Positions 1-8,200 of a DNA stretch of 64,000 nt are shown in pieces. Position 1 is the stretch's first letter, and every line of letters begins with the position of its first letter. The stretch covers positions 308,352 through 372,351 of the forward strand of contig NZ_JYNX01000060.1 in assembly GCF_001044255.1 (NCBI RefSeq), given 5' to 3'. Under the pieces are notes generated by a model. That model ran no database searches and was not told the origin of the DNA. It saw nothing but the letters and a program-made list of their open reading frames with translations. This stretch comes from Mycolicibacterium chubuense. Its GTDB lineage: Bacteria > Actinomycetota > Actinomycetes > Mycobacteriales > Mycobacteriaceae. The translations under genes and the position numbers were made by a program.

Positions 1-400
1 TGCTCGGCGTTGATCAACCCCAGCTGTTGGGCGACCGCGGTGGCATGCAAGACCGGCGAGGGGGGCGCTTTGGCAAGGTTGTCGATGTGTGGCGCTGATC
101 GCAGGAAGTCGAGGATGATCGCGGCGTTTCGAATGACCATCGCGTCGTAGGCGGTCGCGACACCGACCAGATTGCGCTCGACGTCTCCGGAGAACTGCGG
201 CGCGGCTTCACCGAGAGCTTGTGCCTCCCGGCGAGTGCGGCCGCGAACAGGCTCGCTTTATCTCCGAAACGCCGGTACAGCGTGATCTCTCCGACGTTGG
301 CGCGCCGTGCGATTTTGACCGTCGTGGCGGCGTAACCGTGTTCCCGCCACACCGCGAGCACCGCATCCAAAATGCGGTCCGTGGGAATTGGGGCGGGCAA
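1..400 (-). pseudogene. TetR-family transcriptional regulator, frameshifted and cut by the window edge
   Basis: The first ~50 codons from a TTG start at 400 (AGGAGGA sits just upstream) encode a clear TetR DNA-binding domain: ILDAVLAVWREHGY, then a helix-turn-helix ending ITLYRRFGDKASLFAAALA. Around 226-234 the frame breaks. The downstream frame continues as a normal TetR C-terminal domain (EAQALGEAAPQFSGDVERN, later AAIILDFLRSAPHIDNLAK) and is still open at base 1. One missing base in the GCCGGGAGG region would restore the protein. TetR proteins are ligand-responsive repressors that usually control a divergent neighbour, and the divergent operator region is present. This is either a real frameshift mutation or a single-base sequence error. 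The family call is secure; the target is unknown. Confidence 0.8.
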
Positions 401-474
401 TCATTCCTCCTAGATCACTCGGGACGAATCGCACGAGAAGCCGGCGATACCGACTGTCGCACGTTAACGCCACC

Positions 475-518
475 TTGACAGCCAGGCCCATCAATACTGT
501 TGATAGTGATTACTAACA
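475..518 (+). promoter_or_regulatory. Rightward promoter with TetR-type operator
   Basis: A perfect TTGACA -35 hexamer lies at 475-480. About 18 bases downstream there is an imperfect dyad, GTTGATAGT-G-ATTACTAAC (499-517, six of nine positions symmetric). It falls where a -10 element would be, which is the normal position of a TetR operator between divergent genes. The binding protein is inferred to be the regulator encoded at 1-400. Confidence 0.45.
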
Positions 519-535
519 ATCGCCTGGAGGGCAGC

Positions 536-559
536 GTGGGATCAAACACTTACTGTTGA
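536..559 (+). other. Orphan gene start (seven codons, then stop)
   Basis: CTGGAGG at 524-530 is a good ribosome binding site for a GTG at 536, but the frame reads only seven codons before TGA at 557. The site sits exactly where the gene controlled by the adjacent TetR operator should begin. I infer that the original target gene was replaced, and that the junction with the accessory island lies at about 540-560. Confidence 0.4.
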
Positions 560-937
560 CGTACGCAACGGTTGGTCGGCTACGTAGCAGTCTCTTCGGG
601 AGAGTGGCGCTGAAAATGTCAGTGCCACATCGTATTTAAAGACGTTTTCTCGTCAGCTTTTCTCGGGTACCGCTAGCGCTGATCCTGCGAGGATCTAGTG
701 GCACACGTCCCGCACCATCAACGACACGCCCCTCAGTGCCGAAATCATCCAGTGCAAACGTCTCCGCCAAGGCCGGCATTGAAAGACTGCCTAACCAACG
801 ACGCTGGCCCGATGGCACCGATTGCGCGACGACGTTCTGACTGGCACGCCGAAAGCAGTGTCCGAAGTTCAGCGACCTCACGCGGCGCCGAAGAATCGGC
901 GTGCGCGACCGCCTCAACGACCTGATGCTTGCATCCA
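560..937. other. Stretch without a recognisable gene
   Basis: No frame here gives a protein-like product on either strand; the short open frames have unnatural compositions. I see no tRNA, integrase fragment or insertion-sequence end. It may be the upstream regulatory region of the toxin operon plus remnant DNA at the island border. Confidence 0.4.
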
Positions 938-957
938 ACTTTAGTATTTACTAAAGT
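938..957 (+). promoter_or_regulatory. Perfect palindrome, likely operator of the TA-chaperone operon
   Basis: ACTTTAGTA-TT-TACTAAAGT is a perfect 9-bp inverted repeat with a 2-bp spacer, ending 10 bases before the first ATG of the toxin. The left arm contains a -10-like TAGTAT. HTH antitoxins commonly repress their own operon by binding such a dyad over the promoter, so the antitoxin at 1461 is the natural candidate. Confidence 0.6.
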
Positions 958-967
958 CTTGGACAAG

Positions 968-1492
968 ATGATGCAGCGGCGGATGATAGTGAGGGGACAG
1001 TTCCATGAAGTCGGTTGCGCAGTGCGCGAGGACGGGGTTATACCCGCCGGCATGTTCTTGGACGCGCTGAAGAAGGGTGCTTGGAGCGCCCCAGATGAGT
1101 CCGTTCCGTTGGATGAGCAGATCAGCGATTACCACTGGTTTCTCCATGCGATCCGCCACTGGGCGAACACGGGTGAGCCGGTCTACCGAAGTGCGGTCAA
1201 TGCGCTTGACGACGGCGTGTGGGAGTTTCGCCATGGTGATAAACGGCTGACGTTTTTCGACACAGACGGCAACGGTGCATACGCCCCGAAGCTTCCGATC
1301 CGTTCTCACGCTGACAGCGAAGCACCCAACAGCCAGTATTGGCATATCCCCTATTTCGACCAACAGATCCGGCTCGGACACGCGTTCACCAAAGTCAGCC
1401 AGCGGACACTCGCGCAGGATCTTCTCGAGTCCCGTGACACGCGGAAGGAGGATCTCGCCCATGACCAACCGATCCGACCAGACCTTGATTGA
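968..1492 (+). CDS. HigB/RelE-like toxin of a toxin-antitoxin-chaperone module
   Basis: Predicted mRNA-cleaving toxin of the HigB/RelE (phage Gp49-like) superfamily. The C-terminal half carries the family pattern: LDDGVWEFRHGDKRLTFFDT resembles the beta-strand core, and IRLGHAFTKVSQRTLAQDL resembles the HGFxKKSQxTPxxEI segment. About 80 residues precede the core, so the protein (about 174 aa) is longer than typical HigB (~100-125 aa). The first ATG in frame (968) is chosen because it follows the operator; ATG at 971 and 983 and a TTG at 929 are alternatives, and none has a strong ribosome binding site. It overlaps the antitoxin gene by 32 bases. Toxin-first order, as here, is typical of higBA. 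Function is inferred from motifs and context. Confidence 0.65.
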   Translation: MMQRRMIVRGQFHEVGCAVREDGVIPAGMFLDALKKGAWSAPDESVPLDEQISDYHWFLHAIRHWANTGEPVYRSAVNALDDGVWEFRHGDKRLTFFDTDGNGAYAPKLPIRSHADSEAPNSQYWHIPYFDQQIRLGHAFTKVSQRTLAQDLLESRDTRKEDLAHDQPIRPDLD

Positions 1493-1874
1493 TGAGGAAA
1501 ACGCCACAGATGAAGGCGCCCAAGGGCTCGCCGCGGCCGACCTGGCTGGTCAAGTGATGCGTCTACTACAACAAGCACTCGACGCTTCCGAGATGGACCA
1601 GAAGGCCCTCGCCGACAAACTCGGCGTCACGCAGGGGCGCGTCTCACAGGTGATCAACGGCGACGGCAACATGAAGATCGCGGCAGTCGGTCGCTACTTG
1701 CGCGCCCTCGGCTACGAAACGCATCTCGTTGCCTCACCCCTCATCTCAGGCCTTCCGGCACTTCCCCTTGAGTCACGTCACCCGCCTGCCACTTCCTCCC
1801 AGTCAACAGTGACCGAGCAGCGCTATGTTGCACGTCTGCCGAAGCGTCGCCGAGTAGAGGCCAAGAATGCCTGA
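1461..1874 (+). CDS. HTH (XRE/HigA-type) antitoxin with chaperone-addiction-like tail
   Basis: 137 aa, ATG preceded by AAGGAGG. Residues ~30-85 form a lambda-repressor-type helix-turn-helix (MDQKALADKLGVTQGRVSQV, then VGRYLRALGYET). It should neutralise the upstream toxin and repress the operon. After the HTH there is a ~45-residue tail that is proline-rich and then basic, ending RYVARLPKRRRVEAKNA. In TAC systems such as M. tuberculosis HigB1-HigA1-Rv1957, a C-terminal chaperone-addiction segment makes the antitoxin unstable unless a SecB-like chaperone binds it. The next gene is SecB-like and overlaps this one by 8 bases, so the tail is the likely chaperone target. Confidence 0.75.
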   Translation: MTNRSDQTLIDEENATDEGAQGLAAADLAGQVMRLLQQALDASEMDQKALADKLGVTQGRVSQVINGDGNMKIAAVGRYLRALGYETHLVASPLISGLPALPLESRHPPATSSQSTVTEQRYVARLPKRRRVEAKNA

Positions 1875-2853
1875 AGAAATCGAAACGGCAGAACAGCTCG
1901 TCGCCCTCGCAGTCCTCGGCGAGATTGTTATTCACGAGATGTCCGCCATCCGGATGACTAGACCGGACCCGGCTGGGATCAACCTGCCGCCGGAGGAGCT
2001 ACACGCGCCAGACTCAGCCGACGACGATGCGGCGCTGAGCTTCTCTGCTCGCTTGGACGACACCCAACTCGCGGTGCGATCCCGAGTGGAAACCAGTAAT
2101 GCCTACGGGAGTTTCATGGTCGACGGTGAAGCAGTTTTCGACCTGCCGGTGCCGGTCTCTAAACGGCACTCAGACATCGTGTTTCAGTTCGTTGAACAGG
2201 TCGGCGCCCCGGTCGTGTTCCCGTACATCAGATCGACAGTGGCCGCACTCGCCGCTCAGCTGTCGGTGCCCGCGTCGCCGCTCCCCATACTTCGCGCTGG
2301 CGACGTCATCCTCACGCATGACGACGAACCGGCGATCGAGGATGAGCCCTCCGAGTTCTTCATGCATGGCACCCTGCTAGGAACCACGGGAGACGGCGGC
2401 CAAGAGCAAATTGGCGAGTTCTTCCTCGATAAGGAAACCGGGATGCTCGCCCGCATCGGCGGAGAAGGACAGACCCCCGACGCCGACGAACTCCTCGATC
2501 TCATTGCCGGGTTTCCGCGCCCGGAGGAGGTGACCGCGGAGTGGATCGTGCGCAACCACGGCGATGCGGGTATCCGCCAATCCCTCGAGGCTCTACGCCA
2601 AGCCAACGGAGACGCCGTCACGGACCAGATGCTGGCCGAGGTAGACGAGGCAGTCGCGCACATTGAGGCAGAGGAGGCCTTCGCGTCACTGCAGATCGCG
2701 ATCGCGAATCTCGATGCCGTCATCGCATCAGTGCGAAGCAATTACACCGCTGCGGAAGCTGTCGAGGGCGAAGCCGACAGTTCGTCATTGCTCGATGCCG
2801 CCAAACATGTACGCGACAGCTGGGTTCGTGTGCAAAACGCGTTGTCCGATTAG
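1867..2853 (+). CDS. SecB-like chaperone (TAC component) with long C-terminal extension
   Basis: 328 aa. Residues ~10-148 look SecB-like: an N-terminal helix/strand (VLGEIVIHEMSAIRM), the core strands LAVRSRVETSNAYGSF and GEAVFDLPVPV, and the SecB hallmark FPYIRSTVAALAAQLSVP (SecB consensus LFPYAREXI...GFPPLXL). This matches the chaperone of TAC modules, which protects the antitoxin from proteolysis and lets toxin activity be coupled to protein export or infection. Ordinary SecB is ~150-180 aa. Here residues ~150-328 are an extra region: a short domain around MHGTLLGTTGD...GEFFLDKETGMLARIG, then a helical, acidic C-terminus. I do not recognise that extension. It overlaps the antitoxin gene by 8 bases, indicating a coupled operon. 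Confidence 0.72.
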   Translation: MPEEIETAEQLVALAVLGEIVIHEMSAIRMTRPDPAGINLPPEELHAPDSADDDAALSFSARLDDTQLAVRSRVETSNAYGSFMVDGEAVFDLPVPVSKRHSDIVFQFVEQVGAPVVFPYIRSTVAALAAQLSVPASPLPILRAGDVILTHDDEPAIEDEPSEFFMHGTLLGTTGDGGQEQIGEFFLDKETGMLARIGGEGQTPDADELLDLIAGFPRPEEVTAEWIVRNHGDAGIRQSLEALRQANGDAVTDQMLAEVDEAVAHIEAEEAFASLQIAIANLDAVIASVRSNYTAAEAVEGEADSSSLLDAAKHVRDSWVRVQNALSD

Positions 2854-2894
2854 CCGAGCTGCGCAACCAGATACCAATTCCAAAGAGGACTACC

Positions 2895-3317
2895 TTGAAC
2901 AATACTGACTCGCTATCGACCTCGCTCACAGCGGCCTTGTCCGCCGTCGGCGTTCCGGTCGCCAATCATGACTTCATTCGTGAGTTCACCACCGCCGTCG
3001 GCATCGCCGAGTATCTCTACATAAACCAGCCTGGCAAGCCGTACGTCATCGCAACAAGACGGGACGGTGGGCTGCCGCTCCACATCTACTACGGAGCAAC
3101 GAACGGCTTCTCTTCGGAAGAAGAAGTTATCCGGATGGCGGGACCCGCCGCTGATCGCCGAGAAAGCGGATCCCGCAGGGGAACTTGGTGCGTCGAACAC
3201 CCAGTAAATCGAAGCCGTCCCCCCGGCCCGCGTTCCAAGGATGTACGACGCGAGGGAGCCTTTTGCGCATGCGGCATTCAGCGATCAGTGACCGGAGTGT
3301 GCCCGAGCTGCGACTAA
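2895..3317 (+). CDS. Small zinc-ribbon protein of unknown function
   Basis: 140 aa, TTG start behind AAGAGGA. The N-terminal half (HDFIREFTTAVGIAEYLYIN, then IYYGATNGFSSEEEV) looks like a compact folded domain. The C-terminus, FCACGIQRSVTGVCPSCD, has two CxC/CxxC-type cysteine pairs, a pattern seen in small actinobacterial zinc-ribbon proteins. The middle section is arginine- and glycine-rich and less convincing, but the terminal cysteine motif in the same frame argues that the gene is intact. It lies 41 bases after the SecB-like gene and before the EEP enzyme, so it probably belongs to the same island operon. I do not know its function; nucleic-acid or partner binding is a guess. Confidence 0.55.
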   Translation: MNNTDSLSTSLTAALSAVGVPVANHDFIREFTTAVGIAEYLYINQPGKPYVIATRRDGGLPLHIYYGATNGFSSEEEVIRMAGPAADRRESGSRRGTWCVEHPVNRSRPPGPRSKDVRREGAFCACGIQRSVTGVCPSCD

Positions 3318-3381
3318 CCCCTGGGCATCACGCTGACCATCAGCTTGCTGGAGCACTGGACCAGGCGATAGGAGAAACGTA

Positions 3382-4083
3382 ATCAACAACCGGATAGCGA
3401 CTCTCAACATTCGCCATGGCGGAACCCGATCCGCGGAAGCTCTCGCGACTCGACTTCTCGGGTACGACGCCGACCTCCTTGTGATCACCGAGTTCCGCAC
3501 CAGCGACGCCGGCATGCGGCTGATCGGCCGTCTAAAGGCTGAGGGCTATATCACCACACATCCGAGCACCGAGCCCAATCAGAATACCGTCCTCATCGCA
3601 TCTCTACACGCCATCAACCAGCCGAATTCCCCTCTTGGAGAAGGGATCGACACGCGACATCTGTTGTGCGCAGACGTCAACGGGCTGCTGGTGTGCGGTG
3701 TCTACATGCCTCAGAAGACCGCCAAGCTCCCCTACTGGGAAACGCTGATCGCTCAGGCCCGCATCAGCGGGATCGACCTGTTGATTGGTGACTTCAACAC
3801 TGGCAACAACGATCTCGATAAGGACTTGAAGGGATCCAAGTTCATCGGTCCGGAAATGCCTGGGCGACTCATAGACTCGGGGTACACCGACCTGTGGAGA
3901 TCGCTACATCCTGGACAACGTGAGTACTCGTGGTACAGCTGCCCCGGCAACAATGGCTTTCGTCTGGACTACATCTTTGCCGCCCCCGAGCTCACGCGGC
4001 AGGCGATCACGTGCGAGTTCGACCACGCTCCAAGGCTCGCTGGAGAGACCGATCACTCCGCGCTGGTGGCGTCACTGGGCTGA
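3382..4083 (+). CDS. Endonuclease/exonuclease/phosphatase (EEP) family enzyme, non-canonical start
   Basis: About 233 aa with all EEP superfamily motifs in order: RIATLNIRHGG (metal-binding Asn), LLVITEFR (catalytic Glu), VCGVYMP, LLIGDFNTG (Asp and Asn), RLDYIFA, and TDHSALVA (general-base His). Such enzymes are Mg-dependent nucleases or phosphodiesterases; the substrate is unknown. The conserved N-terminus has no ATG, GTG or TTG in frame after the stop at 3334. AGGAG at 3370-3374 is correctly spaced for an ATC codon at 3382 (reading INNRIATLNI). The first canonical start, GTG at 3481, would delete motif I. Either ATC is used, the start codon has mutated, or the gene is inactive. Confidence 0.7.
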   Translation: MNNRIATLNIRHGGTRSAEALATRLLGYDADLLVITEFRTSDAGMRLIGRLKAEGYITTHPSTEPNQNTVLIASLHAINQPNSPLGEGIDTRHLLCADVNGLLVCGVYMPQKTAKLPYWETLIAQARISGIDLLIGDFNTGNNDLDKDLKGSKFIGPEMPGRLIDSGYTDLWRSLHPGQREYSWYSCPGNNGFRLDYIFAAPELTRQAITCEFDHAPRLAGETDHSALVASLG

Positions 4084-4222
4084 CCCTGAACTAGGGCGGA
4101 CCAAGACTACGGACAGGATCGTCGGACATCCCGAATCTGTCTCAGACTTCGTGACCAATTGGGCATTCGGTGGTCGTTTCAGATGGGATTTGGTCATGAA
4201 GTATGAGAAGTCACAACGGCTT

Positions 4223-6436
4223 CTACTGCTTGGCCATGTTGGCGAACCGCGACAGATGCAGCTGATGCGCCACGGTCACCGTGCGCGTCGGGCCGGCACG
4301 GTGCTTCGCGACGATCAGGTCCGCCTCCCCGCCACGCGGGTCGTCGCTTTCGAAGGCGTCCGGGCGGTGCAGCAGCACCACCATGTCGGCGTCCTGCTCG
4401 ATCGATCCCGACTCGCGAAGGTCCGACAGCTGCGGCTTCTTGTCGGTGCGCTGCTCGGGCCCACGGTTCAGCTGGCTCATCGCCACCACCGGGACCTCGA
4501 GCTCTTTCGCCAAAAGCTTGATCTGACGCGAGAATTCGGACACTTCCTGCTGACGTGACTCCACCTTCTTGCCCGATGTCATCAGCTGCAGGTAGTCGAT
4601 CACGACGAGACGCAGGTCCGCCTTCTGCTTCAGCCGCCTCGCCTTGGCCCGGATCTCCATCATCGTCAGGTTCGGTGAGTCGTCGATGTAGAGCGGCGCC
4701 TCGCTGATCTCACTCATCCGCCGCGCCAGCCGCGTCCAGTCGTCGTCGCTCATCCGGCCCGACCGCATGTCGGCGAGCTTGATCCTCGCCTCGGCCGAGA
4801 GCAGGCGCATGACGATCTCGGTCTTACTCATCTCCAGCGAGAACACGATGCTCGGCAGGTGGTGCTTGATCGAGCACGACCGCATGAAATCGAGTCCCAG
4901 AGTCGAGTTGTGCGTGGGGATCATCGATCGGCTGGCCAGGTACATGTGGCTGGCGTTGTCGACCTCGACGCATCGGACCGGAACACTCGGGATGGGTCGG
5001 ACGTCGACGATGAACCGGGACGCGGAGCCGACCGAGCGACGCTCCTTGTGCAGCAGGTCTTTTCGATGCAGCCGGAATACGCTGTCGGCCGCGATGAACG
5101 CGATGCCGCCGGTCGCCTCGGCCTCGCACCGGTAACCGAGCGACACCACGAGTTCTGCAACGTCCTCAGTGAACCCCTCGTCGGCGACACCGAGCAGCAC
5201 CGATCCGTCCTCCGCCACGGTCCCGCGGGCGTCGAGGAGGCCGGCGAGCAGGGAGCGTCGCTGCGCCTCCGAGGCACGCAGGTACTCGACCGGGATGCGC
5301 GTGCCGGCGCGCGCGTCGGACGTACTGGACCCCTCCCCCTCGATCCGCATCAGGATCTCCGGGTCGGTGGTCGCCGGGTCGCCCAACAAGGCACCCAACG
5401 TGTACGGCGGTACCGGAAGTTCGGCGTCCGCAGTCTGCACCGCGGCCGCATTCGTCACCGAGTGGACGAACCCGGTCGACAACGTCTCGGCGATCTCCCG
5501 AGTGGTGCGGATCGCGCCGGAAGCAAGCCACTGGTGCTCGGCGTCGGCGACGATCACTGTGCCGTCGGAGAACTCGACCTCGAAGCAGGGTCGCCCCTCC
5601 ATCACGGCCGTCGCGGCGACGACCCGCGTCGGTAACCCGTCGGGCCCGATCAGCTCGTCACCGACGGCGACCTGGGCCATCGTCGTCCACCCGGTCGGCG
5701 TCGGCAGCGGCGTGTCCAGCGACAGCGCCTTCCCCATACCGGGACGCGCCGCCACGACGATCATCTGACCCGGGTGCAGACCGTTGGTCAGCTCGTCGAG
5801 TTCGGTGAAGCCGGTCGGCACACCCTTCGAGATGCCGCCCTGCGACGCGATCGCATCGATCTCGTCCATCGTCGGCTGCAGCAGCTCTTCGAGCGGCACG
5901 AAGTCCTCGGTGGCCCGTCGCTCGGTGACGTCGTAGATCTCGGCCTGCGCCCGGTCCACGATCTCGTTGACGTCCGCGCCCTCGGCGCCGGCGTAGCCGT
6001 ACTGCACCACCCGGGTGCCCGCCTCCACCAGACGGCGCAGCAGCGCCTTCTCCGAGACGATCTCGGCGTAGAACCCGGCATTGGCGGCCGTCGGTACCGT
6101 CGAGATCAGCGTGTGCAGATACGGCGCCCCACCGACCCGGCGCAACAACCCCTTGCGGTCGAGCTCCGCGGCCACCGTGACCGCGTCAGCGGGCTCTCCG
6201 CGGCCGTACAGATCCAGTACCGCGTCGTAGACGAGTTGGTTGGCGGGCTTGTAGAAATCCCCGGGGCGCAGCCGCTCCAGCACGTCGGCGATGGCGTCCT
6301 TGCTGAGCAGCATGCCGCCCAGCACCGCCTGCTCGGCCGCGAGATCCTGGGGTGGCTGCCGGCCGAACTCCTCGTTGGGAGGAGGCTCCATGGACGTGTG
6401 GTCTCCGGACCGGCCCAAGTCATCGACGACAGCCAC
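4223..6436 (-). CDS. dnaB: Replicative DNA helicase DnaB with intein
   Basis: Hexameric 5'-3' fork helicase. The exteins match mycobacterial DnaB closely: the N-terminal domain (QDLAAEQAVLGGMLLSKDAI), then the RecA-like motor whose Walker A, GMGK-S, is split by an intein. Motor motifs after the intein include SLEMSKTEIVMRLLSAEA, LRLVVIDYLQLM and SQLNRGPEQR. I chose GTG at 6436 (reading AVVDDLG, like the M. tuberculosis protein), with GAGGAGG about 10 bases upstream; GTG 6448 is too close to that site. A second known mycobacterial insertion point, after RESG, is empty. Rv0058 orthologue. A cluster of TGTGGAT motifs lies upstream. Confidence 0.96.
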   Translation of the reverse strand: MAVVDDLGRSGDHTSMEPPPNEEFGRQPPQDLAAEQAVLGGMLLSKDAIADVLERLRPGDFYKPANQLVYDAVLDLYGRGEPADAVTVAAELDRKGLLRRVGGAPYLHTLISTVPTAANAGFYAEIVSEKALLRRLVEAGTRVVQYGYAGAEGADVNEIVDRAQAEIYDVTERRATEDFVPLEELLQPTMDEIDAIASQGGISKGVPTGFTELDELTNGLHPGQMIVVAARPGMGKALSLDTPLPTPTGWTTMAQVAVGDELIGPDGLPTRVVAATAVMEGRPCFEVEFSDGTVIVADAEHQWLASGAIRTTREIAETLSTGFVHSVTNAAAVQTADAELPVPPYTLGALLGDPATTDPEILMRIEGEGSSTSDARAGTRIPVEYLRASEAQRRSLLAGLLDARGTVAEDGSVLLGVADEGFTEDVAELVVSLGYRCEAEATGGIAFIAADSVFRLHRKDLLHKERRSVGSASRFIVDVRPIPSVPVRCVEVDNASHMYLASRSMIPTHNSTLGLDFMRSCSIKHHLPSIVFSLEMSKTEIVMRLLSAEARIKLADMRSGRMSDDDWTRLARRMSEISEAPLYIDDSPNLTMMEIRAKARRLKQKADLRLVVIDYLQLMTSGKKVESRQQEVSEFSRQIKLLAKELEVPVVAMSQLNRGPEQRTDKKPQLSDLRESGSIEQDADMVVLLHRPDAFESDDPRGGEADLIVAKHRAGPTRTVTVAHQLHLSRFANMAKQ
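4907..5728 (-). other. DnaB intein (Ala1, WCT class-3 type, endonuclease remnant)
   Basis: A 274-residue in-frame insertion between GMGK and STLGLDFMR, residues 241-514 counted from GTG 6448. It starts with Ala instead of Cys/Ser and ends MIPTHN before Ser+1. It has the class 3 signature: Trp in block B (AEHQW), Cys in block F (VPVRCVEV) and Thr in block G (IPTHN). In class 3 inteins the block F Cys makes the first attack. The endonuclease blocks are reduced: LGALLGDP, and LAGLLDARG, where Arg replaces the catalytic Asp of LAGLIDADG. Splicing therefore looks possible while homing activity is probably lost. The same site carries the M. smegmatis DnaB intein. Confidence 0.9.
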
Positions 6437-6605
6437 GCGGTGCCTCACCCCTCCTCAATCGACCTCGAACGCACGTTCGACATGCGTCCTGCTGCGACTG
6501 TAAGTCCGGGATCCGACAAACCCCCGTCGGCACCCGCAACTGCGTCCGCGACGGCCAACGCTAGACGTTGCTGAGCCGGACGCAACCACCGCTTGTTGAC
6601 AGACC

Positions 6606-6734
6606 TGTGGATGGCGTGTGGATAGGTCTGGTGAGCCATGTTGAGGGGTTGGGGAGAACCTGTGGATCAACACTGTCATCCGCCCTGTTTCCGCAGATGG
6701 ACGCACGATAGACCGAGGTGAGATCTGTGGATGG
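6606..6734. promoter_or_regulatory. Cluster of DnaA-box-like TGTGGAT motifs upstream of dnaB
   Basis: In the gap between dnaB and rplI (6449-6919) the 7-mer TGTGGAT occurs four times in one orientation: 6606, 6617, 6661 and 6726. Its complement ATCCACA is the core of the DnaA box (TTATCCACA). The ninth-base positions deviate from consensus, so these would be moderate or weak sites. Otherwise the gap holds the dnaB promoter region and the rplI terminator. Confidence 0.45.
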
Positions 6735-6867
6735 GAAATTCGTCGGCGTGTCGTCGCCGGTTTCCTTCTCGGGCGTGTTGTGTTTCGCTTCGGGGCCGGG
6801 CAGGTTAACACCCGGTTATGTTCGCTGGGAAGGATTCGCCCCAAAGAGTTCGCCATACGTACAGCAA

Positions 6868-6903
6868 CGGCCGGGTGAAGACCTCGCGGTCTCCACCCGG
6901 CCG
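6868..6903 (-). terminator. Hairpin downstream of rplI
   Basis: CGGCCGGGTGAAGACC, loop TCGC, GGTCTCCACCCGGCCG: a 16-bp stem with one mismatch, starting 17 bases after the rplI stop codon. No T-tract follows, as is common for mycobacterial intrinsic terminators. It could also serve convergent transcription. Confidence 0.7.
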
Positions 6904-6919
6904 TGAATGCCGTGGGCGG

Positions 6920-7375
6920 CTAGCCGGCGACGACGCTCAGCGACACCGTGGCGGCCACGTCGTGGTGCAGACGCACCGTGACGGGGTGGGTGCCGACGGT
7001 CTTGATGTGCGTCTTGGGCAGCTGCACCGTCCTCTTGTCGAGGTTCGGTCCACCGGCCTTCTTGATCGCGGCGACGACGTCGGCCGCGGTCACCGAGCCG
7101 AACAGCTTGCCCGAATCACCGGCGGTCTTGACCGCCAGCTCGACGCCCTCGAGACCCTCGAGCGCCGTCTTCAGCTCGTTGGCGTGCTCCAGGCTCTTGA
7201 CGCCCTTGAGCTCCTGGGCGCGCCGGATGTCCTCGGCCTGGCGCTGCGCGCCACGGGTGGCCACGATGGCCAGGCCGCGCGGCAGCAGATAGTTGCGGCC
7301 GTAGCCGTCCTTCACCTCGACCGCGTCGCCGGCCGTTCCGAGGTGCTCGACCTCGGCAGTCAGAATCAGTTTCAT
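6920..7375 (-). CDS. rplI: 50S ribosomal protein L9
   Basis: 151 aa, full length. It binds 23S rRNA at the base of the L1 stalk. The N-terminal L9 domain starts [17 protein letters not shown] and carries the signature [16 protein letters not shown], followed by the connecting helix and C-terminal RNA-binding domain. It is the last gene of rpsF-ssb-rpsR-rplI, starting 11 bases after rpsR, with a strong hairpin behind it. Confidence 0.98.
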
Positions 7376-7386
7376 CTCATTCGTCC

Positions 7387-7644
7387 TTATCGCGTCGACG
7401 AGCTGAACGGCAGCAACGCGACCTCACGGGCGTTCTTCACCGCGATCGCGATATCCCGCTGGTGCTGAACGCAATTGCCGGTCACCCGGCGGGCACGGAT
7501 CTTGCCGCGCTCGCTGATGTAGGTGCGCAGCAGCGCGGTGTCCTTGTAATCGATGTTCTGCCCCTTCTTCGAGCAGAACACGCACTTGCGTGTCTTGACC
7601 GGCTTTTCCGGAGCCGGACGCCTCTTCGTGGAGGACTTGGCCAT
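7387..7644 (-). CDS. rpsR: 30S ribosomal protein S18
   Basis: 85 aa beginning [20 protein letters not shown] at ATG 7644. CVFCSKK provides two of the cysteines of the zinc-binding (C+) S18 form, and [19 protein letters not shown] is the S18 signature. S18 pairs with S6 in the platform of the small subunit, and rpsF lies in the same operon. An annotator extending the frame upstream would run into ssb; the ATG is the conserved start. Confidence 0.97.
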
Positions 7645-7693
7645 GGTTTGACTCTTTCTTGAAATGACTCGGATGTTTCCGAATGTTGTTGTC

Positions 7694-8200
7694 TCAGAAG
7701 GGCGGTTCTTCGTCGGCGCCGCCGAAGGATCCCGACGCGGGCGCGCTGCCCCACGGATCGTCCTTGGGCTGCTCCGAGCCGCGGGACGAGTTACCGCCTC
7801 CGCCTCCGCCGAACCCGCCACCGCCGCCACCACTGCGGCTGGCCTTGTTGACCTTCGCGGTCGCGTAGCGCAGCGAGGGCCCGATCTCGTCGACCTCAAC
7901 CTCGACCACCGTGCGCTTCTCACCCTCGCGGGTCTCGAAGGAGCGCTGCTTGAGCCGGCCCGTGACGATCACGCGCGACCCGCGGGTCAAGCTCTCGGCC
8001 ACGTTCTCGGCGGCCTCGCGCCAGATGTTGCACCGCAGGAACAGCGCTTCGCCGTCCTTCCACTCCCCGCTCTGCCGGTCGTAGATGCGCGGGGTGGACG
8101 CAACGGTGAAGTTGGCCACCGCGGCACCGGACGGCGTGAAACGCAGTTCCGGATCGGCGGTCAGGTTTCCGACGACGGTGATGGTGGTGTCACCAGCCAC
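7694..8200 (-). CDS. ssb: Single-stranded DNA-binding protein
   Basis: 168 aa, GTG at 8200 preceded by AGGAGG. The N-terminal OB fold ([20 protein letters not shown] to ~residue 115) is followed by a glycine-rich flexible linker. The protein ends in the acidic tail ADEEPPF, which recruits replication and repair partners. It binds exposed single strands at forks as a tetramer. It sits between rpsF and rpsR, the conserved arrangement (Rv0054). Confidence 0.97.

What the first reader, a model, noticed from the sequence alone, without database searches (positions are those of the whole stretch)
938..4083. Toxin-antitoxin-SecB chaperone (TAC) module linked to a zinc-ribbon protein and an EEP nuclease-like enzyme
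Seen: five same-strand genes in 3.1 kb next to dnaB, with overlaps (toxin/antitoxin 32 bases, antitoxin/chaperone 8 bases), a perfect palindrome in front, and coding style unlike the housekeeping neighbours (ATG, TTG and no canonical start). Known: in TAC systems a SecB-like chaperone guards an unstable HigA-type antitoxin (HigB1-HigA1-Rv1957), and CmdTAC is an anti-phage TAC system. Inference: this is a composite defence island in which the chaperone couples toxin release to infection, and the EEP enzyme is an extra effector or signal hydrolase. I do not know a described system with this five-gene composition.
Basis: partly seen in the sequence, partly recalled or inferred. Interest (0 to 1): 0.88.

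Follow-up and report, generated by a model that had tools for sequence, protein, structure and literature searches.

The report
Chaperone-guarded toxin operon with nuclease cargo
A small mobile set of five genes in an environmental mycobacterium pairs a growth-stopping toxin, its antitoxin and a dedicated chaperone with a zinc-binding protein and a nuclease-like enzyme, probably to shut down cells infected by viruses.

Summary
Window 938-4083 holds five same-strand genes behind a perfect inverted repeat. The third protein has a SecB-like N-terminal domain: its best fold matches are the solved mycobacterial TAC chaperone, then E. coli SecB. An HTH antitoxin and a HigB/Gp49-like toxin (weak sequence evidence) fit a HigBA-type TAC. 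Relatives of the two-domain SecB occur in 10 of 396 sampled genus genomes, one of them frame-broken. A zinc-ribbon gene follows directly in 7 of 10. The full five-gene order occurs in 3 of 10, at two different chromosomal sites; between window and G830, DNA homology runs from window 920 to 4218, so the five genes look like one transferable unit. The nuclease gene has ATC where 10 of 10 other EEP loci examined have ATG or GTG. A ribbon is fused to an EEP elsewhere. Two of ten TAC loci adjoin BREX type 2 or a DrmD-like helicase; the window's own neighbours show no obvious defence genes. Best reading: a chaperone-gated RNase for abortive infection with an appended ribbon and nuclease; a new variant of a known kind (TAC). 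Phage defence and the roles of ribbon and EEP are inferred, not shown.

The parts
938..957 (.). operator-like inverted repeat ACTTTAGTA-TT-TACTAAAGT in front of the toxin; probable HigA-type autorepression site
   Evidence: sequence; single hit, 0 in 100 shuffles; core TTTAG-N6-CTAAA in 12 of 12 toxin-bearing loci
968..1492 (+). toxin, 174 aa, HigB/Gp49-like with about 30 extra residues in its C-terminal half
   Evidence: Pfam Gp49 in 6 of 7 family members, best 1.6e-5, window member 0.05 and under the cut-off; PDB HigB 6af3 E=4.7e-4 for the whole, in two collinear pieces that are weak on their own; dN/dS 0.195 vs G830
1461..1874 (+). antitoxin, 137 aa, Xre/HigA-type HTH
   Evidence: HTH_3 4.5e-7, 30.3 bits, cut-off 23
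1812..1853 (+). candidate chaperone-addiction tail TEQRYVARLPKRRR at the antitoxin C terminus
   Evidence: E.RY.AR..KR.R kept in 8 of 8 loci with the two-domain SecB aligned and in GF69; truncated in SecB-less relic L094, absent from SecB-less L095, and only loosely similar in L096, which has a single-domain SecB-like gene
1867..2340 (+). SecB-like domain (about residues 1-158) of the chaperone
   Evidence: four strands then a long helix; Foldseek 5mtw A-D E 1.2e-5 to 2.8e-5, then 1qyn, 1fx3; all 9 hits at E<=0.001 are SecB
2341..2850 (+). C-terminal extension of the chaperone (about residues 159-328), strands then long helices; no recognised family
   Evidence: model partly below pLDDT 60; absent from the shorter SecB-like proteins of Rhodococcus plasmids and Gordonia phages aligned
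2895..3317 (+). zinc-ribbon protein (ZnR), 140 aa, C-terminal CxC...CxxC
   Evidence: directly follows SecB in 7 of 10 loci; no Pfam, NCBIfam, PADLOC or PHROG family, no PDB fold match at E<=0.001
3382..4083 (+). EEP (exonuclease III-like) enzyme, 233 aa, from a non-canonical ATC start
   Evidence: Exo_endo_phos 3.5e-11; exonuclease III PDB 2.1e-17 with the family profile; N, E, D/N, D and DH motifs present; ATC in 3 of 3 five-gene loci
920..4218 (.). extent of DNA shared with G830, where the block is not beside dnaB: the probable transferable unit
   Evidence: blastn 920-2854 at 84.4% and 2886-4218 at 86.7%; no dnaB match in the 19.5 kb of L165

Best explanation
A transferable HigBA-type toxin-antitoxin-chaperone (TAC) operon with two appended genes. 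Antitoxin, probably with toxin, represses the promoter at 938-957 (inferred). The SecB-like chaperone holds the antitoxin through its basic-aromatic tail and keeps it from proteolysis (inferred from the solved mycobacterial system). When unfolded phage structural protein occupies the chaperone, the antitoxin is lost and the HigB-like toxin cleaves translated mRNA, so the infected cell stops before phage matures (inferred by analogy with CmdTAC and HigBAC). The ribbon protein and the EEP enzyme form a nuclease accessory in which the ribbon domain positions the EEP on nucleic acid; the EEP is kept low by its ATC start (inferred from a fusion, from linkage and from the conserved start). Shown here: gene order, overlaps, predicted SecB fold, conserved operator and tail, purifying selection, recurrent ribbon and EEP linkage, the same unit at two chromosomal sites. 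Not shown: toxicity, chaperone dependence, phage protection, nuclease activity.
For: SecB fold with the TAC chaperone on top. HTH antitoxin whose tail is kept in 8 of 8 aligned loci with the two-domain SecB, cut in a SecB-less relic and missing in a SecB-less relative. HigB-like toxin. Antitoxin and chaperone frames overlap by 8 bases in the window, G140, G049, G434 and G830; ORF coordinates of G810 and G930 give the same; G044 has 1 and GF69 a 4-base gap. Operator core in 12 of 12. Five-gene order in window, GF69 and G830 with dN/dS 0.15-0.25 on all five genes. EEP-ribbon fusion in one 438-aa ORF (L064). A different EEP with a C-terminal cysteine motif starts within about 30 bases of the SecB end in G044. 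TAC-ribbon lies directly before PglW, PglX, BrxC/PglY, PglZ, BrxD, BrxHI in G140. TAC directly before a DrmD-like helicase in G930. In 148 genomes, SecB carriers have ribbon in 5 of 6 against 14 of 142, and EEP in 5 of 6 against 8 of 142 (not corrected for relatedness).
Against: The window's own neighbourhood looks ordinary, and 8 of 10 TAC loci have no clear defence neighbour; a large protein near the G049 locus matched no PADLOC family. Ribbon is missing in G044, G810 (contig ends 1.6 kb beyond SecB) and G930, and the same-family EEP is not adjacent in 7 of 10. Ribbon genes also stand alone beside unrelated genes. The toxin is under Pfam's cut-off, and a profile-profile comparison with 9 actinobacterial Gp49 sequences gave 1.1% probability. 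The chaperone model is of modest confidence (mean pLDDT 63.5, pTM 0.37). The EEP lacks a canonical start, so its expression is unproven. No activity was tested.
Confidence: 0.58

Rival explanations
1. An ordinary stress or addiction TAC that maintains a mobile unit; ribbon and EEP are hitchhiking cargo with their own unrelated roles and there is no anti-phage function.
For: Patchy distribution, 10 of 396. The TA core is more alike between window and GF69 (about 94-96% DNA) than the neighbouring dnaB (71-85%), so it moves. Ribbon genes occur without TAC in many places. Toxin frame-broken in GF69 and G123, SecB frame-broken in G020 while the ribbon stays open, as expected of separable parts.
Against: TAC-linked ribbons cluster on the ribbon tree (2 changes against a shuffled mean of 5.3, 1 of 500 shuffles as low, without G830). 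Five-gene order kept at two sites under purifying selection. BREX type 2 and DrmD-like neighbours in 2 of 10.
Confidence: 0.27
2. The EEP-ribbon pair is the defence device (a nuclease that cuts invading nucleic acid) and TAC is only its addiction guard, which makes loss of the unit costly.
For: EEP and ribbon occur together without TAC: a fusion in L064, about 1.4 kb apart beside an HmaA-like helicase and a PDC-S37 protein in L066, and within 2 kb in L073. Genomes with EEP carry ribbon in 7 of 13 against 12 of 135 without EEP (not corrected for relatedness).
Against: Four of seven TAC-ribbon loci have no adjacent EEP (G020, G049, G140, G434); the EEP start is non-canonical, so it is probably low in abundance.
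Confidence: 0.13

Closest known systems
Mycobacterial TAC HigBA1-SecB(TA) (Rv1955-Rv1957); PMC5105189 and PMC6377645, passages seen
   Same: Gene order toxin, HTH antitoxin, SecB-like chaperone; SecB fold with 5mtw as the best hit; antitoxin C-terminal extension with aromatic and basic residues
   Different: The chaperone carries an extra part of about 170 residues; ribbon and EEP genes follow; no sequence-level match to 5mtw with the chaperone profile
CmdTAC (PD-T4-9), PMC11618068, passages seen
   Same: TAC architecture; SecB-like chaperone, which in CmdTAC senses phage capsid; weak PD-T4-9_C hit at residues 102-142, E=0.0042
   Different: CmdT is an mRNA ADP-ribosyltransferase; the toxin here is HigB/Gp49-like
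HigBAC of E. coli, activated by the lambda major tail protein; PMC11980606, passages seen
   Same: HigB-type RNase toxin, HigA, SecB-like HigC in an anti-phage TAC
   Different: No ribbon or EEP mentioned in the passages seen; single-domain chaperone (recalled)
Exonuclease III / EEP superfamily (Exo_endo_phos PF03372)
   Same: Catalytic motifs kept
   Different: Below the exonuclease III equivalog cut-off, 45.3 bits against 182.55; tied to a zinc-ribbon partner

Membership tests
TAC (toxin-antitoxin-chaperone) module | SecB-like chaperone encoded with the TA pair | tested here: met
   Foldseek: all 9 hits at E<=0.001 are SecB proteins, Rv1957 first; gene overlap 8 bases
TAC (toxin-antitoxin-chaperone) module | toxin of a known TA family (HigB, HicA, MqsR or similar) | tested here: inconclusive
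   Gp49 in 6 of 7 members, best 1.6e-5; HigB 6af3 4.7e-4; window member under the cut-off; hhalign with 9 Gp49 sequences 1.1%
TAC (toxin-antitoxin-chaperone) module | HTH-type antitoxin | tested here: met
   HTH_3 over the cut-off
TAC (toxin-antitoxin-chaperone) module | C-terminal chaperone-addiction extension on the antitoxin | tested here: inconclusive
   basic-aromatic tail conserved in 8 of 8 aligned loci with the two-domain SecB, lost in 2 of 2 SecB-less relatives, only loosely similar in L096; binding not testable here
TAC (toxin-antitoxin-chaperone) module | toxin control requires the chaperone | not testable with these tools
   needs growth-rescue assays
CmdTAC | toxin is a diphtheria-type ADP-ribosyltransferase | tested here: not met
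   no ADP-ribosyltransferase family among Pfam, NCBIfam, PADLOC or PHROG hits of the window toxin; HigB/Gp49 instead
EEP nuclease (Exo_endo_phos) | family score and catalytic residues | tested here: met
   43.7 bits against cut-off 24.5; N9, E37, D137, N139, D196, D224, H225 invariant in 12 of 12 aligned; that these are the catalytic positions is recalled
Exonuclease III equivalog | curated NCBIfam cut-off | tested here: not met
   TIGR00195 45.3 of 182.55 bits
Defence island | known defence genes next to it | tested here: inconclusive
   none seen for the window by reading its ORFs (not run against PADLOC); yes for G140 BREX type 2 and G930 DrmD-like; a helicase with weaker hits (best 1.8e-17) in G434

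The most novel reading that the evidence does not exclude
A two-stage abortive device run by one chaperone: the SecB domain guards the HigA-type antitoxin while its new C-terminal part holds the ribbon-EEP nuclease. A single phage protein that strips the chaperone would then release an mRNA-cutting toxin and a nucleic-acid-cutting enzyme together, the second one dosed low by a conserved ATC start.
Probability: 0.18. Interest if true: 0.8.

Novelty: new variant of a known kind. Interest (0 to 1): 0.56.

Why it matters
TAC modules are described as three-gene systems in the passages seen. Here an enlarged chaperone and a ribbon protein, found only in this genus in the samples searched, recur with the TAC, and a nuclease is added in a conserved five-gene unit that lies at two different chromosomal sites. 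If the ribbon and EEP act with the chaperone, TAC would be a modular sensor platform rather than a single toxin switch, and it could be tested in ordinary laboratory strains. The ribbon family is itself a marker of variable regions in this genus, some of them defence islands.

Tried and rejected
Toxin against Gp49 by profile-profile: 1.1% probability with small alignments, so the HigB call rests on HMMER only. One member of a first Gp49 alignment (A7) was taken in the wrong frame, so A7 was dropped. Gp49 or SecB Pfam matches anywhere in the own genome: none at E<=0.001. ZnR fold search: 284 matches at E<=10, none at E<=0.001. ZnR members against Pfam: only one member each with WYL 0.13 and TA_inhibitor 0.27, taken as noise. 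ZnR or toxin relatives in IMG/VR: none confirmed; ZnR in phage records: none; toxin in plasmid records: none. RNA families in 1-8000: none at gathering score. Relatives' DNA at the 3' end of dnaB showed only that the site is variable. Weak SecB hits at 7e-4 to 9e-4 in G098 and G007, and G044:C34 at 2.7e-4, were not counted. Of 19 ZnR genomes, four (G028, G030, G090, G107) have only partial matches and were not aligned; a divergent copy (G096) was also left out of the alignment. PD-T4-6 hits of neighbouring kinases were disregarded as general Ser/Thr kinase similarity. Fisher tests are not corrected for relatedness. The third gene of L096 reads as SecB-like only in an alignment (23% identity) and was not tested further. 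One search translated the toxin one base out of frame; later calls use 968.

Full report
Observation. Five + strand genes fill window 968-4083 between a left flank that reads as TetR and metabolic genes and the convergent dnaB gene. Toxin and antitoxin overlap by 32 bases, antitoxin and chaperone by 8; ribbon and EEP follow after 41 and 64 bases. The inverted repeat at 938-957 has 9-base perfect arms and its core is unique in the window. A TTTAG-N6-CTAAA core lies before the toxin in 12 of 12 toxin-bearing loci examined, including two distant relatives; most of the sequence further upstream aligns poorly between loci. G+C is 0.603 over 968-4083 and 0.676 over dnaB.

Identity of the parts. Chaperone: 328 residues. 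An AlphaFold2 model from five sequences (mean pLDDT 63.5, pTM 0.37, better in the N-terminal domain) shows four strands and a long helix. Foldseek puts the Rv1957 TAC chaperone with its bound antitoxin peptide first (5mtw, four chains, E 1.2e-5 to 2.8e-5, TM-score by target length 0.64-0.67), then E. coli and H. influenzae SecB; all nine hits at E<=0.001 are SecB. Sequence searches alone did not find this, apart from a weak CmdC-type PADLOC hit. The C-terminal part of about 170 residues has no recognised family and is absent from the shorter relatives of Rhodococcus plasmids and Gordonia phages. Antitoxin: HTH_3. Its tail E.RY.AR..KR.R is kept in 8 of 8 loci with the two-domain SecB in one alignment and in GF69 in another. 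It is cut short in relic L094 and missing in L095, both without SecB, and only loosely similar in L096, whose third gene looks like a short SecB. This fits the published description of chaperone-binding stretches as short and rich in aromatic and basic residues (PMC5105189, passages seen). Toxin: Gp49 in 6 of 7 family members, best 1.6e-5, but only 0.05 for the window copy; a family profile finds the solved HigB 6af3 at 4.7e-4 through two collinear pieces that are weak on their own; a profile-profile test with nine Gp49 sequences did not support it. EEP: exonuclease III-like, motif positions kept; LINE-1 endonucleases also match. Ribbon: no known family and no fold match for a model of pLDDT 82.9.

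Relatives. The two-domain SecB is found in 10 of 396 genus genomes at E<=1e-20: G000 (window), G020 (frame-broken), G040 (the named Mycolicibacterium sp. GF69, also L012 and L014), G044, G049, G140, G434, G810, G830, G930. Ribbon follows SecB directly in 7 of 10 (not G044, G930, nor G810, whose contig ends 1.6 kb beyond). The order toxin-antitoxin-SecB-ribbon-EEP occurs in 3 of 10: window, GF69 and G830. G830 turned up after the linkage had been noticed and has all five genes open. There the block is next to a kinase gene, with no dnaB in the 19.5 kb fetched, yet it shares DNA with window 920-2854 and 2886-4218. GF69 shares the dnaB site with the window; there the TA core is about 94-96% identical while dnaB is 71-85%. 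Together these indicate transfer as a unit. In G044 an EEP of another subfamily, with a C-terminal cysteine motif, begins within about 30 bases of the SecB end. In G049 and G020 the same-family EEP lies about 8 and 11 kb away. G140 has its EEP in another place in the genome; none was seen within the fetched stretches of G434, G810 and G930.

Decay. The toxin is frame-broken in GF69 and in G123, where no SecB was found in 15 kb and the antitoxin tail is cut. In G020 no toxin or antitoxin was found and SecB is frame-broken, but the ribbon is open. The parts are thus separable, which counts against a strictly obligate five-part machine. Between window and G830, where all five stand, dN/dS is 0.15-0.25.

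Ribbon and EEP beyond TAC. In 148 genus genomes ribbon occurs in 19 (E<=1e-5; four only in part) and the close EEP family in 13 (E<=1e-25). They share 7 genomes (Fisher p=2e-4, not corrected for relatedness). In order-wide sampling ribbon was found in 8 of 348 genomes, all of this genus, 1 of 79 genera. Ribbon is fused to an EEP in L064. In L066 ribbon and EEP lie about 1.4 kb apart next to an HmaA-like helicase (E 1.2e-254) and a PDC-S37 protein. Other ribbons stand beside helicases, a macro-domain-like gene, kinases and metabolic genes (read from sequence). TAC-linked ribbons cluster on the tree but share a clade with three that have no TAC.

Start codon. In 3 of 3 five-gene loci the EEP has ATC where 10 of 10 other EEP loci examined have ATG or GTG, behind a Shine-Dalgarno-like AGGAG or AGGAC (two further, more distant EEP loci and the fusion were not examined for this). 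In the window an in-frame stop rules out an upstream canonical start, and the first downstream one (GTG 3481) would cut off the first motif. Conserved weak initiation is the simplest reading; failure to express is the alternative.

Mechanism. By analogy with CmdTAC, where capsid protein displaces the antitoxin from the chaperone (PMC11618068, passages seen), and HigBAC, which responds to the lambda tail protein (PMC11980606, passages seen), I expect chaperone titration by phage protein, antitoxin loss and RNase release. For the appended pair, the fusion argues that ribbon and EEP work together, most simply with the ribbon as nucleic-acid guide. Context in relatives supports a defence role in 2 of 10 TAC loci: a complete BREX type 2 set (PglW, PglX, BrxC/PglY, PglZ, BrxD, BrxHI) directly downstream of TAC-ribbon in G140, and a DrmD-like helicase (3.6e-118) directly downstream of the TAC in G930. 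The window itself shows no such neighbours in its ORF list.

Novelty. Searches of the held open-access library for toxin-antitoxin-chaperone with 'SecB-like' (20 papers), with 'zinc ribbon' (none) and with 'BREX' (three), and for CmdTAC (eight) were seen as listings with the start of each abstract; none of these describes a TAC with these two extra genes as far as shown. Five papers were seen in passages: PMC5105189, PMC6377645, PMC11618068, PMC11980606, PMC4257090; a sixth, PMC10440598, likewise. I rate the finding a new variant of a known kind.

Noticed in passing
L024 3465-4270; L025 3192-4285 and 5028-5881: Gordonia temperate phages Suerte and Agueybana carry HTH plus SecB-like gene pairs with no toxin relative recognised, beside immunity repressor, metalloprotease and integrase genes; Agueybana has a possible second pair, its SecB-like reading resting on a 19% alignment. 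SecB-like genes in phages and antitoxin-chaperone pairs are mentioned in PMC4257090 (passages seen).
   Followed up: partly
L022 4375-5426, L023 3273-4288, L026 4228-5279: Rhodococcus plasmids carry a protein that reads as DNA-binding followed, with a 4-base overlap, by a short SecB-like protein.
   Followed up: partly
L015 7894-14777, L097: TAC-ribbon sits immediately before a complete BREX type 2 operon in G140.
   Followed up: yes
L063 4417-8250; L071 5479-8354; L099: Ribbon genes beside large WXG-like, possibly type VII secreted proteins, and beside ESX genes on an M. paragordonae plasmid.
   Followed up: no
L083 9661-10437; L072 7698-8195: A C-terminal CPxC...TGxCxxC motif like that of the ribbon also ends an otherwise different protein in L083 and a divergent ribbon protein in L072.
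   Followed up: no
window 4223-6448 (-): dnaB carries an insert between its helicase domains that looks like an intein (weak Hom_end match); dnaB of GF69 lacks it.
   Followed up: no
window 4139-4222 and L111 2097-2174: Part of the conserved DNA after the EEP matches the dnaB 3' flank of G024, so the G830 copy may have carried away dnaB-side DNA.
   Followed up: partly
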